Position numbers and translations under genes: made by a program. From Lentisphaeria bacterium (lineage in GTDB: Bacteria > Verrucomicrobiota > Lentisphaeria > Victivallales > UBA1829): a stretch of DNA of 40,214 nt. This document shows, piece after piece, positions 19,402 to 37,892 of the stretch. The stretch lies in the NCBI GenBank assembly GCA_017503375.1, contig JAFVTF010000061.1, forward strand, positions 1 to 40,214, given 5' to 3'. Every line of letters begins with the position of its first letter. Position 1 is the stretch's first letter. Under the pieces are notes generated by a model. That model was not told the DNA's origin and did not search any database. It was given only the letters and a program-made list of their open reading frames with translations.

Positions 19402-19460
19402 GAATAGATTCCATGATAACACTGGAAGAAGTTCTCTTTAATGCAGTACAGGAATTATAA
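19392..19460 (+). pseudogene. 3'-terminal relic of a second M20 peptidase gene
   Basis: Read in the frame ending with TAA at 19458-19460, this stretch encodes E-S-V-R-I-D-S-M-I-T-L-E-E-V-L and ends N-A-V-Q-E-L. That parallels the end of the M20 gene at 14687 (ESVRIDSMITLEEIL...AVEEVSC). Thirty bases (19401-19430) are identical to 14622-14651; after that the two diverge at DNA level while staying similar as protein. It overlaps the last codons of the DUF4838 gene in a different frame. It is therefore the tail of a paralogue, not a functional gene. Confidence 0.8.
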
Positions 19461-19468
19461 ATTTATAA

Positions 19469-19615
19469 GCGCTGTTCCCCATACAGGTTGGTAAATCCTT
19501 CTGCTATTTTAACTTTAAGATGGCATTCCGATTTTTGCAACACAAAAATCAAAATATCATCTTAAAGTTAAATAGAATGGCAGAAGGATTTACCACCACA
19601 TACGGGGAACAGAGC
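19469..19615. repeat. Long palindromic element, family A copy 2
   Basis: A 147-bp near-perfect palindrome is bounded by GCGCTGTTCCCC (19469-19480) and GGGGAACAGAGC (19604-19615). Both arms contain a GGTAAATCCTTCTGC-like segment and an AACTTTAAGAT segment facing each other. It follows the end of the seven-gene operon and could fold into a very long hairpin in RNA, so it may also end transcription. It shares ends, arms and core with 7891-8093 but lacks the extra hairpin. Confidence 0.85.
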
Positions 19616-19771: not shown

Positions 19772-20137
19772 ATGAAATTCAAAATGGTTCACAACAACTT
19801 CAATGTCTTTGATCTGGAAAAAAGTCTTGCTTTTTATGCGGAAGCATTCGATATGCACGAAGCGCGCAGAATAGAAAAACCGGATTTTATTATTGTTTAT
19901 CTGGAAGACGGAAACAGCAGTCATCAACTGGAATTGACCTGGCTCCGTGACCGGACCGAGCCCTATGATCTTGGAGAGGATGAATTTCATCTGGCATTTG
20001 TAGTTGATGATTATGAAGCAGCTCATGCTTTGCATGAAAAAATGGGCTGTATCTGCTATGAAAATCCGGAAATGGGCATCTATTTTGTAGAAGATCCCGA
20101 TCATTACTGGCTGGAAGTCCTGCCGGAAAAACGGTAA
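19772..20137 (+). CDS. VOC-family enzyme, glyoxalase I-like (lactoylglutathione lyase)
   Basis: The 121-residue product has the vicinal-oxygen-chelate fold in two beta-alpha-beta-beta-beta halves. Expected metal ligands are seen as His near the start (MVHNNFNV), Glu in HQLELTW, His in EFHLAFVVDD and Glu in HYWLEVLP. The start at 19772 is chosen because it gives the normal short glyoxalase N-terminus; upstream in-frame ATGs from 19712 encode an unrelated leader. It stands alone between two repeat elements (family A copy 2 and MITE copy 2), with the MITE starting five bases after its stop. It probably detoxifies methylglyoxal adducts, but other VOC functions are possible. Confidence 0.8.
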   Translation: MKFKMVHNNFNVFDLEKSLAFYAEAFDMHEARRIEKPDFIIVYLEDGNSSHQLELTWLRDRTEPYDLGEDEFHLAFVVDDYEAAHALHEKMGCICYENPEMGIYFVEDPDHYWLEVLPEKR

Positions 20138-20142
20138 TTGAT

Positions 20143-20307
20143 GAGGCAATTTCAAAAGTCTTCAAAAATGTCTGAAAATTCTTGCAGAGATCTGAAAATG
20201 GAGCGTTTTCGGTGGTTACTCTTTGAGTAGCCACACTCAAACTACCATTTCCATTTCATCAGCAATCTCTTTTCAGCCAAATTTTGCCGGACTTTTGAAA
20301 TTACCTC
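20143..20307. repeat. Foldback MITE-like element, copy 2 (complete)
   Basis: This 165-bp element has 18-bp terminal inverted repeats (20143-20160 and 20290-20307) differing at one base. It is flanked on both sides by TGAT (20139-20142 and 20308-20311), a likely 4-bp target-site duplication. The interior is an imperfect palindrome with no coding capacity. Bases 20168-20307 match 1-140 with one difference, so the two copies separated recently. The transposase that moved it is not in the window. Confidence 0.88.
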
Positions 20308-20345
20308 TGATAAAAAAATGAATTTTTTTTCAGGAAAATACAACT

Positions 20346-20367
20346 GAGTGGACGAAAAAGTCCACTC
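20346..20367. other. Perfect 8-bp hairpin upstream of the CRISPR relic
   Basis: GAGTGGAC (20346-20353) and GTCCACTC (20360-20367) enclose a six-base A-rich loop. No T-run follows, so it does not look like an intrinsic terminator. It lies 46 bases before the CRISPR repeat; whether the two are related is unknown. Confidence 0.5.
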
Positions 20368-20413
20368 TGCGCATGTATATTTAAGATAAGCAGCTTTTGA
20401 TATTCTTCCGGTA

Positions 20414-20484
20414 GTCTAGAATCCTATTGAATTTCTACTGTGTGTAGATAGAAAAAAATGTATCTGCGGATGATGTCTAGAATC
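20414..20484 (+). CRISPR. Truncated type V-A (Cas12a-like) CRISPR unit
   Basis: A 36-base unit at 20414-20449 begins GTCTA and ends AATTTCTACTGTGTGTAGAT, matching the length, the 5' end and the TCTAC-loop-GTAGA hairpin of Cas12a direct repeats. A 25-base spacer-like segment follows (20450-20474). Then comes a second GTCTAGAATC (20475-20484), identical to the first ten bases of the repeat, after which similarity is lost. So one full repeat, one spacer and a repeat stub remain. No cas gene is present in the window, and the family A element copy 3 begins a few dozen bases downstream. Confidence 0.8.
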
Positions 20485-20520
20485 TTGAAAGGCGACGACG
20501 AAACTCTATCCTTTTCCTGT

Positions 20521-20653
20521 CCTCCGGCTCCTTGTGCGAAGGAGGATTTCCAAACCTTTTTGCGGCATTCCGATTTTGGCACTGCAAAAATCAAAATGCC
20601 ATCTTTGGGTTAAAATAACAGAAAAATTTACCAACCCATGTGTGAAACAGAGC
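20521..20653. repeat. Long palindromic element, family A copy 3 (diverged)
   Basis: The palindromic core (20564-20600), the segment AATTTACCAACCCAT and the end AACAGAGC (to 20653) match the other family A copies. Read on the plus strand it aligns with the reverse complement of copy 1, including the bases left of the core. Its left arm has a small hairpin (TCCTCC/GGAGGA type, about 20519-20538) where copy 1 has its large one. The left terminus is not recognisable, so the element is decayed. Confidence 0.65.
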
Positions 20654-21149
20654 TTTTCAAGGGAAAATTGGAAACGCCGCAAAAAAAAGGGTGCTGCGGA
20701 AAAAGGAGAAACCGCAACACCCGGGGGGCATAAGAAACCGGAAAGTATCAAGGGAAAAAAGGAGTAAACCTTAATACTTCCCGGATTTTTCTTTCACAAA
20801 ACGGAAAATTTACAACTTAATAACCTTCCGTTATAGTAATATATACCAAAAAAAGAAAAAGTCAAGCATCAAAAGTAAAAAAAAATGATTTTATGTCCAG
20901 TTGTCGATTGTAAAAGTAAACGCAATCCCTAAAAAGATGTTGTTTGCATTTAATCTGACAAAGAAGAGGGGGTGCATTTAATCTGACAAATCCTATAAAG
21001 TGATTAGAATATTTTTAAAGATGGAAAAGAGAGAAAATAGAGGTATGCTATGATCCGGGGGAAGCCTCCCTCCCACCGGTGTGAGGGGGGGAGTAGCGTT
21101 TAATTAGACAAATCGCCCTCCTCAGTGGATTTGCAGAAGGAGTTGCATT
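20654..21149. other. Non-coding stretch with hairpins and short direct repeats
   Basis: No gene is seen. Two consecutive inverted repeats are present: GGGTGCTGCGG / CCGCAACACCC (about 20689-20722) and CCGGAAAGTATCAAGG / CCTTAATACTTCCCGG (about 20739-20785), the second followed by a T-rich run. An 18-base direct repeat occurs at 20945-20962 and 20973-20990. A GC-rich near-palindrome centred on ACCGGT lies near 21066-21094. The rest is AT-rich. Confidence 0.6.
20945..20990. repeat. Tandem 18-bp direct repeat TGCATTTAATCTGACAAA
   Basis: Two identical 18-base copies lie at 20945-20962 and 20973-20990, 28 bases apart. A diverged form (GCGTTTAATTAGACAAA) lies at 21096-21112, just before the IS30 fragment, and a weaker one (ACATTTAATTTGAT) just after it near 21407. 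They look like repeated IS ends or a preferred target left by nested IS30-type insertions. Confidence 0.6.
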
Positions 21150-21404
21150 ATGGCACACCTCACACATTCCCAAAGGTCCTTGATTAAATCCGGACTGAAA
21201 AATCAGGATTCTTTCAAGGAAATCTCCAGGAGTATTGGAAAATCCCCATCTACTGTTTCACAGGAAGTACTCAAACATCGAATTGACAGCGACAAAGGAA
21301 CGTATGGAAGAATAACCAATCGTTGTATTTATCGCCGGAATTGCAGTCGTTTGAGAGTTTGTGATGAGCTTTGTAAGACTAAACGCCCCCGGAAAGGATA
21401 TTGA
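21150..21404 (+). pseudogene. IS30-family transposase, N-terminal fragment
   Basis: The 84-codon frame encodes the helix-turn-helix of IS30-type transposases: LTHSQRSLIKSGL, then SFKEISRSIGKSPSTVSQEV, then a cysteine-containing segment (NCSRLRVCDELC). Full-length members have about 320-380 residues with a C-terminal DDE domain, which is absent. The frame stops after the first cysteines, and 19 bases later another gene fragment begins. An AGAAGGAG ribosome-binding site is still present. It cannot transpose by itself, but could still bind IS ends. Confidence 0.75.
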
Positions 21405-21423
21405 TTACATTTAATTTGATGAG

Positions 21424-32982: not shown

Positions 32983-35007
32983 TTACTGTTTTACCTTCCA
33001 CACTGTTTCATCGCCGCAGATGTTGCGGATTTTTAAGCGCAATGGTTGTTTGTCGCTGGTGATTGTACCATCCCAGAATTCTTTGGTCTTTACACCATTG
33101 CGGATGACGTAGCCGAGTTTATCTATCTTGATTTCGCTGTCGGAGTGCCAAATGCCGTCGGCAGAAGTACAGTCAACGGAGAGAAATTCAATGAGTTCCA
33201 AGCCGGTATCGCTGATGGTAATTGGGGTGAATTTTTTCTTTTCGTTGGTGTTGGCAATGCCTTTTTCGTTGTAGGCGTGAATTTTGTCATAAACCCGGTC
33301 GCTGGCAAATTTGTTGATTTCGATGCGGTATCCGGTAAATAATCCATCCTGCATTTGCTGACAGGAAAATTCGGCGTAATCTTCGGCTACGACATCGTCC
33401 AGAACCTCTTTCAGATCCCGCAACTCAATTTCTTTATCGGTCGTGGTGTCATTTTTGATAAAGTTCCGGATTTCTTCCGGATCAGAAATATCCACATAGT
33501 AAACAATGACTTTTTTGACGGTATTGTCAAGATCGGGAATTGCCACATTGATAATGCGATTCATCAAAACCACATCCAGCAATTTGGTGCTGCTGTCCAT
33601 CAAATTCGGCACATATACGGGAACCATGCCAAGTTTGCTGTCAAAAATCGCACCTTCCCAGAATGAATCCAGAGAATCTTCGTTGCGCAGTCCGGGGATA
33701 AGAGATTTGATTTTATCCATTGTCTGCTGCGGATTACGGTAAAGAGAAACTCCGTCTTTGATTTCCAATACATCAAATTCAGCCTTATCTGCCAGCAGCC
33801 GGTCGCGGGTCGTTTGGATGGAATTAATGCCGATATCGCAATGAATAAAACGGCGCCCTAACTTATTTGCTACGGCTGCTGCGACACCGCTGCCGCCGAA
33901 AAAGTCAGCAATCAACATATTTTCATTGGAACTGGCTTTTATGATGCGTTCCAAGAGAGCTTCAGGTTTTTGAGTGGCGTAATCTGTACTTTCCTTTGCT
34001 TGGGAATTAATAACATATATATCAGCCCAAAGGTTTTGAATTGGTTGCCCCTCGTATTCGTCTAAAAAAGTTTTTCGTCGAATACGCTGACTTTTATCTT
34101 CAGGGAAATATAGCCTTCCCGCTTCATCCCATTCTTTCATCGTATCATATGAGAATGCCCAGCCTTTAACGGGAGGTTTATAACCTTTATACTCATATAT
34201 CAAAGATGGAGTTGGTACGGCTGCAGGATTTGTTACAGGATCACGACTATACAAACGCCCATCTCCATCATCATATATAAAACGTTCTTTTATGTATTCC
34301 TGGGCATCTTGACTATCTTTAGTTTTCTGAACATTAAAAATATATTCTTCACTTTTTGAATATAAGAATATTGTATCGGTAAGTTGCCCGAACGCTTTGA
34401 AATTGTTAAGAGCACCACCTCGCCTTTTCCAAACTATTTCATTTCTAAAATTATCTTCTCCAAAAATTTCATCCAAAAGAATCTTCACATAGTGCCCTAT
34501 GTGATAGTCCAAATGAACATAAATACTGGCAGTTTCACTCATAACGGACTTGATGGCACAAAGATTTTCGTACATCCAGTTGAGATATTTTTCTTTATCC
34601 CAGACATCGCCGTACATAGTTTCTTCAAAGGTTTTGAAATCTTCGTTCTCCAACTCTTCTTCTGCTTTGGCAATGGCTTCTGCCACTTTCGGGTTACGGC
34701 GGATATAAATCTTTTTGGCATAATCCGCACCGCTGGCAAAGGGCGGGTCAATGTAAACAAGGTCAACGGTTATACCCTGTTCTTTCAAATAAGCACAGGC
34801 AGAAACACATTCGCCCCTGATAACCATATTACCGTCGGCATTTTTACCAATGGTTTCCTGTTTTTCCATTTCATACAGCGGCATACCGCGTTTCAGTTTA
34901 CCCGTAACCTCATACGCCCCTTTGTACCGCAGAGTACGCTTGAAATTATCCAGCAAAGCCTGACCTTCGATCGGCTCCGGAAAGAACGGTATATATTTGA
35001 TCGGCAT
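32983..35007 (-). CDS. mod: Type III restriction-modification system, Mod DNA methyltransferase
   Basis: The 674-residue protein is a beta-class N6-adenine methyltransferase that also carries target recognition for the type III complex. Catalytic motif IV is DPPF in YIDPPFASGADYAKKIYIRR (about residue 86), and the S-adenosylmethionine motif FGGSG in DFFGGSGVAAAVANKLGRRF follows near 368. That is the order expected of this class. The region between is the likely recognition domain. It starts two bases after the res stop, with AGGAG inside the end of res, so the pair is translationally linked. The DNA is more AT-rich than in the lar or DUF operons, suggesting acquisition. Confidence 0.92.
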   Translation of the reverse strand: MPIKYIPFFPEPIEGQALLDNFKRTLRYKGAYEVTGKLKRGMPLYEMEKQETIGKNADGNMVIRGECVSACAYLKEQGITVDLVYIDPPFASGADYAKKIYIRRNPKVAEAIAKAEEELENEDFKTFEETMYGDVWDKEKYLNWMYENLCAIKSVMSETASIYVHLDYHIGHYVKILLDEIFGEDNFRNEIVWKRRGGALNNFKAFGQLTDTIFLYSKSEEYIFNVQKTKDSQDAQEYIKERFIYDDGDGRLYSRDPVTNPAAVPTPSLIYEYKGYKPPVKGWAFSYDTMKEWDEAGRLYFPEDKSQRIRRKTFLDEYEGQPIQNLWADIYVINSQAKESTDYATQKPEALLERIIKASSNENMLIADFFGGSGVAAAVANKLGRRFIHCDIGINSIQTTRDRLLADKAEFDVLEIKDGVSLYRNPQQTMDKIKSLIPGLRNEDSLDSFWEGAIFDSKLGMVPVYVPNLMDSSTKLLDVVLMNRIINVAIPDLDNTVKKVIVYYVDISDPEEIRNFIKNDTTTDKEIELRDLKEVLDDVVAEDYAEFSCQQMQDGLFTGYRIEINKFASDRVYDKIHAYNEKGIANTNEKKKFTPITISDTGLELIEFLSVDCTSADGIWHSDSEIKIDKLGYVIRNGVKTKEFWDGTITSDKQPLRLKIRNICGDETVWKVKQ

Positions 35008-35009
35008 GG

Positions 35010-37892
35010 TTATTTCTCCTCAAAGAATTTTTTTATTACATCTGCAGTTTTGTTTATCCGTTCTTGCTCGGATTCAGAATCTTCCAAGTAAAGATACTCA
35101 AACCGGGCATATTGGAAAACTTCATTGTTTTTCTGCAGGAAGGTATCTTGCACAAACGCTTTTTTATCTTGGAATGTCGGATCATTGGCATAGATTTGAC
35201 CTTTGGTCTCAACGATGATCGCCCGGTGGATTGCTCCGTCTTTGCGTTGGATGATGAGAAAGTCCGGGGTGTACATTCCGATATATTTCCAATAGCAATT
35301 GATTTTCTTGTAACAACGGATCTTGAATTCTGTTAACGCCCGGTCTCCGTTATAATAAACTTCCAAATTCAGACTGTTGACACAATCAAGCAACAGAACT
35401 TCCTGAAGAAAAAGCTGTTCAAAACTGCTGTCTGTTCGATATGGCAGATAGTGATAGGATTGATCTTTATGAGGAACACTTTTCTCTCCGCGCAACTGAT
35501 CAGCCATTGCTTTTCGTCCGACGCTTTCAAGTATTTTGATAATTTCAAGCTCTTTTTCAGAAAGAGTATTGCCTTTGTCTGCATCAACAATTTTTTGTAC
35601 CATTTCCTGATCTGGATAGAAGATGTTCGGAGTGTCAGTAGAAACAGTCGATGTGAAGTTTTCAACTTTCAGAAGTCTGGCATCTTCCGGTATCAACTCT
35701 TCACTGCTTTTGAAAGTTCGTTTAGCATAAAACGCCTTACGGATATTGGCATTGATCAAGTCTATACGATATTCAGGACAGAAAAAAACAATGCCATTCT
35801 CTTTAACAGTTATTTTCTCGAAGAGTTGCCGCAGTATTGCCTCATGCGGCTGCAGCAGATTCATAAACTCTGCAATCGGTCCGAAACTCCCTTTGGCTAT
35901 ACTGTAAAGCCAGGAGTTGTAGTTTGCAACAGTATGATTGCTTCCTGTGACTTGCGTTGCAATATCGGCATCTACTAAATGATCTTTCATTTCAGCAGAA
36001 GTGATAGAACCGTAATGCTTGGTATTATCTGCAGCAGAGGATAACTCTTGAACGGTGTCCCGTCCTTCATCAACTACCAATTCCTGATGTTCCACCCGCA
36101 GTTGATAAAATTTTACCGGAGGCAGCTGCAGATGTTTGGTGCGGTCAAACCGTTTCAATTCAGTCAGCTGTACCGATGAACCACGCTCAAATTCGGATAT
36201 GGAAATGTGATGCAGCTGTGCCAGTTGCTTATTGAGAGCTTCGGCGTTGCTGCCATTCAGGCAAATCAATGCAGTTTCAGTAACATTTTTCTGAACTTGC
36301 CGCAAACAACGGCAGGAGGTCTGCAACACCATATTGGTCGGACAATCTCCCTCCTGAGAAAGAATGATCCCGGTCAGACTGCGGCAGTCCCATCCTTCTT
36401 TGCCGATTTGAGCAAGCAAGATGATTCTGATTTTTGAAAACGGTTTATCCAAACTGGCAAACTCAAGATCGCTGTCTGCCGGTTTAGGATAAATCTTATT
36501 GCCTCCGTGATAACGCAGAATCACCTCCGAGGCATTCAATCCGTACTCTTCGGCAAGTTTTGCTGCCAATGGATAAATTTCAGTTTCCAGTGTTTCAATA
36601 AGACCGCAGTAAATTCCCAGTTTTGCACACGTCCCGTCAGGATAAATGGTGTCTTTATAGTTTGCAAAGAAATCCCGAATGCCCTGTTCAACGATTTGCA
36701 AACGCGGTAAATCTTTAACGATTTTCACAATCGGCTTTTTCAGAAAATTGCCAATACCATTTACCAGTGGATAATAATAAACAATATTGGAAATTTCGAT
36801 TGATGCAACCGATAAATTTTCTGCAACATAAGTTTTTTCTGCTTTCGCCAGATAGGGAGTCCCGGAAAAACCGATCACGCTGTTAAGCGTATGGTTTTCC
36901 ATCCAGTTGTTGACTACGGCACGGAGTTTTTTATCATCAGTTGTGGCGTGGTGGACTTCATCAATAAAAACTGACAGATGCGGCAATTTTCCAATAAGGT
37001 TACGCAGTTCATTAGCCTGGCAGTCTTTGTCGTCATCCGTTTTTTCAATCAGCTGCAACTGTCCGGCTTTTTCATCGACATCAACCCGGTCAAGAATGAC
37101 TTTCTCTGCGTTGGTAACTGCGACTAAACCAAACAAATCCTGCAAGGGTTGATGGATGGCAATCTTCTGAACATTTGGATTTTTGGTCTTATTAGACTTG
37201 CTGGCACTTTTATTTTGATCAAGCACCTCAAAAATCAGCTTGCGCTTCAGATTGCTGGCGGCTGGCTCAGGAATTACCCACGAAGGATCAAAGTTTTGAA
37301 TTGTCCTCAGACTCGGAATGACCGAAGATTTCAAACCTGATGGTGCAAGAATAATAAAGTTATGGGCAAATGCCGGATTATCAGGTTCATTTTCAGCAAA
37401 ATACAAGTCAAGGTAAATAAATGCCGCCATCAAATAAGTTTTTCCGGCTCCCATAGGCAAGCTGAAAAGAAAATCCGAATAAGAGACATCATAAAACGCT
37501 TTTTTGAAAAAATCATCATAATCGATTTCCGCAGGAGCAGATTTTATTTTAGCAAGCACTTTGGGCGAAAATGGTTTACCGTTTTCATCTGGCATGGAAG
37601 CATATTCATACAGTGCTGCGGCTGCAGGATTATTTTGCAAAAATTCTCTGGCTGTTGTTGTCAGTTCAAGATTATCCCAGTTTATATCAAAATTAAACTC
37701 TCCATTGACAAAGAGATCGTAAAGAGAGCGGCATTGACAGGCAATTTTTAAAAAGAGATAGGTCTTCACCGCTTCTATCTGGGCATCTCGCAGTTTTGCT
37801 TTGCTGATGACATACGACAACAACTCCCGCACGGGGCAAGTGTCTGTCGCTAACCACAGGTCACGTTTCTTTTGAATGAGTTTATAAAACAT
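35010..37892 (-). CDS. res: Type III restriction-modification system, Res helicase-nuclease
   Basis: The 960-residue subunit couples ATP hydrolysis to cleavage after Mod recognises unmethylated sites. It shows helicase motif I LPMGAGKTYLMAAF (about 146), motif II VFIDEVHHA (about 309), motif III GFSGTPYLA and motif VI QTSCRCLRQV. A C-terminal PD-(D/E)xK nuclease site follows (PDFLIIQRKDG about 876, then VETKG about 896). All key residues are intact, so the enzyme looks functional. It is unusual only in preceding mod; in many type III loci mod comes first. Confidence 0.92.
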   Translation of the reverse strand: MFYKLIQKKRDLWLATDTCPVRELLSYVISKAKLRDAQIEAVKTYLFLKIACQCRSLYDLFVNGEFNFDINWDNLELTTTAREFLQNNPAAAALYEYASMPDENGKPFSPKVLAKIKSAPAEIDYDDFFKKAFYDVSYSDFLFSLPMGAGKTYLMAAFIYLDLYFAENEPDNPAFAHNFIILAPSGLKSSVIPSLRTIQNFDPSWVIPEPAASNLKRKLIFEVLDQNKSASKSNKTKNPNVQKIAIHQPLQDLFGLVAVTNAEKVILDRVDVDEKAGQLQLIEKTDDDKDCQANELRNLIGKLPHLSVFIDEVHHATTDDKKLRAVVNNWMENHTLNSVIGFSGTPYLAKAEKTYVAENLSVASIEISNIVYYYPLVNGIGNFLKKPIVKIVKDLPRLQIVEQGIRDFFANYKDTIYPDGTCAKLGIYCGLIETLETEIYPLAAKLAEEYGLNASEVILRYHGGNKIYPKPADSDLEFASLDKPFSKIRIILLAQIGKEGWDCRSLTGIILSQEGDCPTNMVLQTSCRCLRQVQKNVTETALICLNGSNAEALNKQLAQLHHISISEFERGSSVQLTELKRFDRTKHLQLPPVKFYQLRVEHQELVVDEGRDTVQELSSAADNTKHYGSITSAEMKDHLVDADIATQVTGSNHTVANYNSWLYSIAKGSFGPIAEFMNLLQPHEAILRQLFEKITVKENGIVFFCPEYRIDLINANIRKAFYAKRTFKSSEELIPEDARLLKVENFTSTVSTDTPNIFYPDQEMVQKIVDADKGNTLSEKELEIIKILESVGRKAMADQLRGEKSVPHKDQSYHYLPYRTDSSFEQLFLQEVLLLDCVNSLNLEVYYNGDRALTEFKIRCYKKINCYWKYIGMYTPDFLIIQRKDGAIHRAIIVETKGQIYANDPTFQDKKAFVQDTFLQKNNEVFQYARFEYLYLEDSESEQERINKTADVIKKFFEEK

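What the first reader, a model, noticed from the sequence alone, without database searches (positions are those of the whole stretch)
20414..20484. Orphan Cas12a-type CRISPR repeat-spacer relic
One 36-base unit has the full hallmarks of a type V-A repeat: a GTCTA start, a terminal AATTTCTAC-x-GTAGAT block and a TCTAC/GTAGA stem with a five-base loop. It is followed by a 25-base spacer and only the first ten bases of a second repeat. No cas gene lies in 40 kb. It is either the ruin of an array cut by the neighbouring mobile elements, or a solitary unit still able to give a crRNA for a Cas12a encoded elsewhere, or a regulatory crRNA-like guide. A degenerate downstream repeat also occurs in known crRNA-like regulators.
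Basis: partly seen in the sequence, partly recalled or inferred. Interest (0 to 1): 0.85.

Follow-up and report, generated by a model that had tools for sequence, protein, structure and literature searches.

The report
Leftover tail of Cas12a CRISPR array
A 71-base stretch of this Lentisphaerae-type genome is the surviving last repeat, last spacer and worn-out end repeat of a Cas12a (type V-A) CRISPR immune array whose other genes are gone; it sits at a chromosomal spot where two sister species carry Cas9 CRISPR systems instead, so it is a fossil of defence-system turnover rather than a new kind of element.

Summary
20414-20449 is a 36-nt type V-A repeat, followed by a 25-nt spacer and ten bases (perhaps fifteen, with a 3-nt gap) of a second repeat at +61. 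Chance is excluded: about 1e-5 exact copies of the 20-nt 3' module are expected in this genome, and that module recurs 25 times in an archaeal array beside cas4/cas1/cas2-type genes. The full repeat is unique: absent from 136 other genomes of the order, 387 of the phylum, 84,980 species genomes and IMG/VR. The own genome holds no detectable Cas12a; its cas1 belongs to a type I-C locus on another contig.

Best reading: the trailer end of a lost V-A locus. A real V-A array in the same family also ends in a repeat cut after its 5' part. In both congeners the orthologous spot, just after the same glyoxalase gene, holds a Cas9 locus, and the two are only distantly related. In two other genera, serine-recombinase islands sit in the same gene's 3' end. 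So this is a defence-turnover slot.

Function is unlikely: no cas12a, protospacer, recognisable promoter or conservation, and the spacer folds onto the handle. The neighbouring elements did not cut the array; one is a clean MITE insertion 106 bp upstream.

The parts
19772..20137 (+). glyoxalase/bleomycin-resistance-fold gene; anchor of the slot, orthologous gene followed by Cas9 CRISPR loci in both congeners
   Evidence: Pfam PF00903; orthologues 93% in G002, 82% in G001; Cas9-Cas1-Cas2-array directly downstream in G002, Cas9, cas1 and array in G001
20143..20307 (.). 165-bp MITE-like element with terminal inverted repeats GAGGCAATTTC/GAAATTACCTC, TGAT duplicated at 20139-20142 and 20308-20311
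   Evidence: more than ten copies in own genome at 95-99% and many in congeners; inverted arms; empty site TAATTGATAAAAAA in G001
20346..20367 (.). 8-bp hairpin GAGTGGAC/GTCCACTC after the glyoxalase gene, conserved in both congeners: marks the orthologous position
   Evidence: G001 GAGTGGATGAAAGAAGTCCACTC, G002 GAGTGGACCAAAGAAGTCTACTC
20388..20413 (+). 26 nt without homology to the congeners, between the end of the orthologous sequence and the repeat; spacer-sized, could be a preceding spacer or leader residue (undecided)
   Evidence: alignment; no IMG/VR match, only chance-level phage match without TTTV
20414..20449 (+). complete type V-A (Cas12a) direct repeat
20450..20474 (+). 25-nt spacer; no protospacer found; folds onto the crRNA handle
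20475..20489 (+). truncated terminal repeat: GTCTAGAATC exact, then TTGAA matching after a 3-nt gap; the stem-loop is missing
   Evidence: same kind of 3'-truncated terminal repeat in the genuine V-A array of G029
20547..20690 (.). second dispersed repeat element (TTTTTGCGGC...GCCGCAAAAA inverted ends), starting about 62 bp after the unit; a related copy lies at about 19453-19615
   Evidence: right edge approximate

Best explanation
The unit is the distal (trailer) end of a type V-A CRISPR array: last full repeat, last spacer, 3'-degenerate terminal repeat. An ancestor probably carried a Cas12a locus directly downstream of the glyoxalase gene, in a slot where CRISPR-Cas and other defence cargo are exchanged; the cas genes, leader and the other units were later lost, leaving the tail. 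When intact it would have worked as ordinary V-A immunity: Cas12a cuts pre-crRNA 5' of the AAUUUCUAC...GUAGAU handle and the 25-nt guide directs cleavage of TTTV-flanked DNA. Today it is most likely inert. Shown here: repeat anatomy, uniqueness, no detectable Cas12a, orthologous slot occupied by Cas9 loci in congeners. Inferred: that a V-A operon once stood there, and the deletion.
For: V-A hallmarks at the right spacing: GTCTA start, AATTTCTAC-N5-GTAGAT end, 61-nt period, 25-nt spacer; genuine arrays in relatives and in the archaeon UBA328 have 61-65-nt periods, and the literature gives UCUAC[N3-5]GUAGAU at the repeat 3' end as the V-A motif (PMC7757703). The exact 20-nt module stands 25 times in the UBA328 array, beside ORFs that read by eye as the C-terminal part of cas12a, cas4, cas1 and cas2. 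V-A systems occur in the family: Cas12a in G029 and G005. The G029 array ends in GTTTCAGCCCATGGACTAATTT then unrelated sequence, the same kind of 3'-truncated terminal repeat. Position: sequence orthologous to both congeners runs from the glyoxalase stop through the hairpin to about 20387 and ends 26 nt before the repeat; beyond that point G002 has tracrRNA-like sequence, Cas9, Cas1, Cas2 and array, and G001 has a Cas9 only 33% identical over its N-terminal part with a different repeat. No Cas12a in own genome.
Against: No genome with an intact V-A locus carrying this repeat at this site was found, so the parent locus is inferred. V-A repeats read in the family begin GTTTC or GTCAAAA, not GTCTA. 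The one full repeat shows no decay against the V-A consensus, which fits recent loss but also selection. The genome is 93.6% complete, so a Cas12a elsewhere is not excluded.
Confidence: 0.78

Rival explanations
1. A complete one-spacer mini-array or crRNA-like regulator (CreR-like), still transcribed and used with a Cas12a encoded in the unassembled part of the genome or on a mobile element.
For: The repeat is intact and the downstream repeat is degenerate, as in known crRNA-like regulators; genome completeness 93.6%.
Against: No Cas12a in own genome or in either congener; no sigma-70-like site upstream of the repeat; no TTTV+14-nt target with fewer than 2 mismatches in own genome; unit absent from all relatives; spacer pairs with the handle, intended stem probability 0.0005, worse than 98% of random 25-mers.
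Confidence: 0.1
2. A solitary repeat unit acting as an RNA anti-CRISPR (Racr) delivered by a mobile element.
For: V-A Racrs exist and inhibit Cas12a (PMC10651486); mobile elements lie nearby.
Against: A second partial repeat lies in register at +61, which the published definition of a solitary unit tries to exclude; the surroundings are chromosomal, not phage or plasmid; no match in IMG/VR, phage or plasmid collections; host has type I-C, not V-A.
Confidence: 0.05
3. Part of a type II (Cas9) locus, for example a tracrRNA or leader piece, misread as a V-A repeat; the same 20-mer abuts a Cas9-type array in G099.
For: Congeners have Cas9 loci in this very slot; exact 20-mer at the edge of the G099 Cas9-type array.
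Against: G099 has a separate, ordinary tracrRNA-like stretch beside its cas9 remnant; the Cas9-type loci of G001, G002 and G004 and the array regions of G022 and G038 lack the motif; the window unit has the GTCTA start and the 61-nt second copy, which no type II element explains.
Confidence: 0.04
4. Chance resemblance.
For: A single copy, unique in all collections.
Against: Zero matches in 300 random windows; combined match of start, module and in-register second copy far below 1e-6 for a genome of 3.6 Mb (arithmetic).
Confidence: 0.01

Closest known systems
Type V-A (Cas12a) CRISPR arrays, e.g. in G029 of the same family and in Methanomassiliicoccaceae UBA328
   Same: 36-nt repeat, TCTAC/GTAGA stem, 25-27-nt spacers, and in UBA328 the identical 20-nt 3' module; in G029 a 3'-truncated terminal repeat
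   Different: one repeat-spacer unit only, no cas genes, 5' half of the repeat not seen anywhere else
Orphan or relic CRISPR arrays after loss of cas genes
   Same: short array, no adjacent cas genes, host has another CRISPR type
   Different: nothing essential
Racr / solitary repeat units (PMC10651486)
   Same: single full repeat in an intergenic region
   Different: has a spacer and an in-register partial second repeat; not on a phage or plasmid; no V-A host system
CreR-type crRNA-like regulators of cas operons (own knowledge)
   Same: intact repeat plus degenerate second repeat
   Different: no cas12a promoter to regulate; no target found

Membership tests
Type V-A CRISPR array (remnant) | repeat 3' end with UCUAC-N3-5-GUAGAU stem-loop and AAUUUCUAC context | tested here: met
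   motif definition
Type V-A CRISPR array (remnant) | at least two repeats in register with a 24-27-nt spacer | tested here: met
   GTCTAGAATC at +61; second copy is partial
Type V-A CRISPR array (remnant) | repeat sequence used in a genuine array | tested here: inconclusive
   20-nt module yes; full 36-nt repeat not found anywhere
Functional type V-A system | cas12a in the genome | tested here: not met
   TIGR04330 no match in own genome, 93.6% complete
Functional type V-A system | adjacent cas1/cas2/cas4 | tested here: not met
   own cas1 is type I-C on contig C106
Functional type V-A system | transcribed and processed crRNA | not testable with these tools
   no RNA data
Racr (solitary repeat unit) | single repeat with no further partial repeat in the flanks | tested here: not met
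   partial repeat at 20475 (criterion)
Racr (solitary repeat unit) | carried by a virus, prophage or plasmid | tested here: not met
   chromosomal neighbours, T2SS operon and metabolic genes
CreR-type regulator | partial match of the spacer to a promoter with PAM, usually of cas genes | tested here: not met
   only 2-mismatch matches, no more than the backward control

The most novel reading that the evidence does not exclude
A lone Cas12a-type guide kept in a host without its own Cas12a and used with an incoming or unassembled Cas12a, or a V-A repeat kept for a purpose next to other CRISPR systems; G099, in the same order, has the identical 20-mer at the edge of a decayed Cas9-type array.
Probability: 0.06. 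Interest if true: 0.75.

Novelty: new member of a known kind. Interest (0 to 1): 0.33.

Why it matters
It is a readable footprint of Class 2 CRISPR turnover: one chromosomal slot, after one gene, carries two only distantly related Cas9 loci in two sister species and a Cas12a array tail in the third, and the same gene's 3' end is used by serine-recombinase islands in other genera. It shows that orphan repeats can mark which immune system a lineage has lost, and that a perfect V-A repeat alone should not be read as an active guide.

Tried and rejected
Protospacer searches: spacer exact and TTTV+seed against IMG/VR, BLAST against phages and plasmids, seed in own genome: nothing above chance. The 26 nt before the repeat as a possible earlier spacer: no IMG/VR match; a 25/28 match to Klebsiella T4-like phages at E 0.09 has no TTTV and mid-spacer mismatches, taken as chance; plasmid matches also chance-level. 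The 20-mer in Jeotgalibacillus (L028) lacks the GTCTA start and lies just after a chemoreceptor gene: chance. The tracrRNA idea for G099 was rejected because a normal tracrRNA-like stretch lies by its cas9 remnant. One-mismatch hits AATTTCTACTTCATGGAGAT in genus g6 were taken as unrelated conserved sequence, not examined further. Right-hand edge of the slot: in G002 the array is followed by a speA-type (arginine decarboxylase-like) gene; in own genome and G001 that gene lies on other contigs with other upstream sequence, so it gave no empty-site evidence. Rfam gave nothing in the window.

Full report
1. Observation. The sequence is as described. 20414-20449 reads GTCTAGAATCCTATTGAATTTCTACTGTGTGTAGAT; a 25-nt spacer and GTCTAGAATC at 20475 follow, 61 nt after the first start. 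This is the only pair of GTCTAGAATC in the window. The next five bases, TTGAA, match the repeat again after a 3-nt gap; this is suggestive only. In 300 order-1 random windows the core motif never appeared. In the own genome the 20-nt module occurs once at up to two mismatches and the 5' part once at up to three.

2. Is it a real V-A repeat? [quoted passage not shown] A scan of 84,980 species genomes for the exact 20-mer gave three places: an archaeal array in Methanomassiliicoccaceae UBA328 with 25 copies, beside ORFs that read by eye as the end of cas12a, then cas4, cas1 and cas2; the G099 place discussed under things noticed; and a chance place in Jeotgalibacillus. The full repeat (GTCTA, 11 bases, module) is in no other genome of that collection, nor in IMG/VR. 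With any loop of 3-6 nt, GTCTA-type V-A repeats are absent from the other 136 genomes of the order and 387 of the phylum.

3. Cas genes. Cas12a (TIGR04330) has no match in the own genome or its two congeners, but is present in G029 and G005 of the same family, and in G087 and G095 of the order; arrays of G029 and G087, and array ends in G005 and G095, have other V-A repeats. The own genome's only cas1 lies on contig C106 in a complete-looking type I-C locus (Cas3, Cas5c, Cas8c, Cas7c, Cas4, Cas1c by PADLOC) with its own array.

4. The end repeat. The genuine V-A array of G029 ends with GTTTCAGCCCATGGACTAATTT followed by unrelated sequence: the 5' part of the terminal repeat is kept and the stem-loop is gone. 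The window's second repeat is the same kind of object. The simplest reading is therefore last repeat, last spacer, terminal repeat.

5. The slot. The gene upstream is a glyoxalase-fold gene with orthologues at 93% in G002 and 82% in G001. In both, a Cas9 locus starts directly downstream. In G002: Cas9 1026 aa, Cas1, Cas2 and a 12-repeat array. In G001: Cas9 1232 aa, cas1 and a 14-repeat array. The two Cas9 are only 33% identical over the N-terminal part and their repeats differ, so they are separate acquisitions or replacements. A third genus, G004, also has a Cas9-type locus after one of its two glyoxalase copies. Aligning the intergenic starts shows clear orthology from the stop codon through a conserved hairpin (20346-20367) to about 20387. 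The V-A unit begins 26 nt further on, where the congeners run into their Cas9 loci.

6. Mobile elements. The element at 20143-20307 is a MITE: inverted ends, TGAT duplication, many copies, and the empty site is present in G001 as TAATTGATAAAAAA. It inserted beside the slot and cut nothing. The second repeat element begins about 62 bp after the unit.

7. Why a slot for defence? In G011 and G008 (other genera) there are two glyoxalase copies, one truncated at the same codon (about residue 110, after DP[NE]), each next to a large serine recombinase gene; the full copy lies at the other end of the stretch. G011 carries a UzuA homologue inside and a KAP NTPase (PADLOC candidate PDC-S20) just after the full copy. 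The 3' end of this gene therefore looks like an integration site for mobile islands. That is an inference from two cases and was not needed for the main conclusion.

8. Function now. No sigma-70-like site lies upstream of the unit. No protospacer was found in IMG/VR, phage or plasmid sets, and no good seed+PAM site in the own genome. Folding the mature crRNA (20-nt handle + 25 nt), the spacer pairs with the 3' half of the handle (-9.8 kcal/mol; intended stem probability 0.0005). In genuine arrays 61-89% of units keep the handle above 0.5, and only 1.8% of random 25-mers behind the same handle do worse. Such a guide would be expected to perform poorly; this is a thermodynamic prediction, not a test.

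9. Known relatives. RNA anti-CRISPRs of V-A type exist (RacrVA1-3; PMC10651486), but they are carried by mobile elements and are defined by the absence of a second partial repeat; both features fail here. crRNA-like regulators need a Cas12a and a promoter target; neither was found. Orphan arrays left after loss of cas genes are an ordinary, known kind.

10. Verdict. The unit is a V-A array tail, most likely dead, in a CRISPR turnover slot. Confidence 0.78. The remaining uncertainty is about activity and about where the parent locus stood, not about what kind of sequence this is. The interest lies in the comparison across congeners.

Noticed in passing
L021:9945-9964 (G099, Lentisphaerae SIG90; same as L029:2944-2963): Exact AATTTCTACTGTGTGTAGAT abutting the distal end of an 18-repeat Cas9-type array next to a cas9 reduced to its first 196 codons; preceded by CTCTA at the position where V-A repeats have GTCTA. 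Possibly another V-A relic, possibly chance (about 0.5 chance copies expected in the whole collection).
   Followed up: partly
L098:2824-11258 (G011) and L099:134-11284 (G008): Stretches bounded by a full and a truncated glyoxalase copy, with a large serine recombinase beside the truncated copy; truncation at the same codon in two genera, suggesting an attachment site in the gene's 3' end. G011 has a UzuA homologue inside and a KAP NTPase next to the full copy.
   Followed up: partly
window 20143-20307: MITE family with TGAT target duplication, more than ten copies per genome at 95-99% identity in this species and many in congeners and G008.
   Followed up: partly
window 20945-21420: Remnant of an IS30-like element: HTH_38 N-terminal fragment of 84 aa and repeated GCATTTAATCTGACAAA ends.
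   Followed up: no
window 32983-37892: Probable type III restriction-modification pair (DNA methylase 674 aa, ResIII-type 960 aa) about 12 kb from the unit.
   Followed up: no
G000:C106 (L089): Type I-C CRISPR-Cas locus of the own genome with at least 15 repeats.
   Followed up: partly
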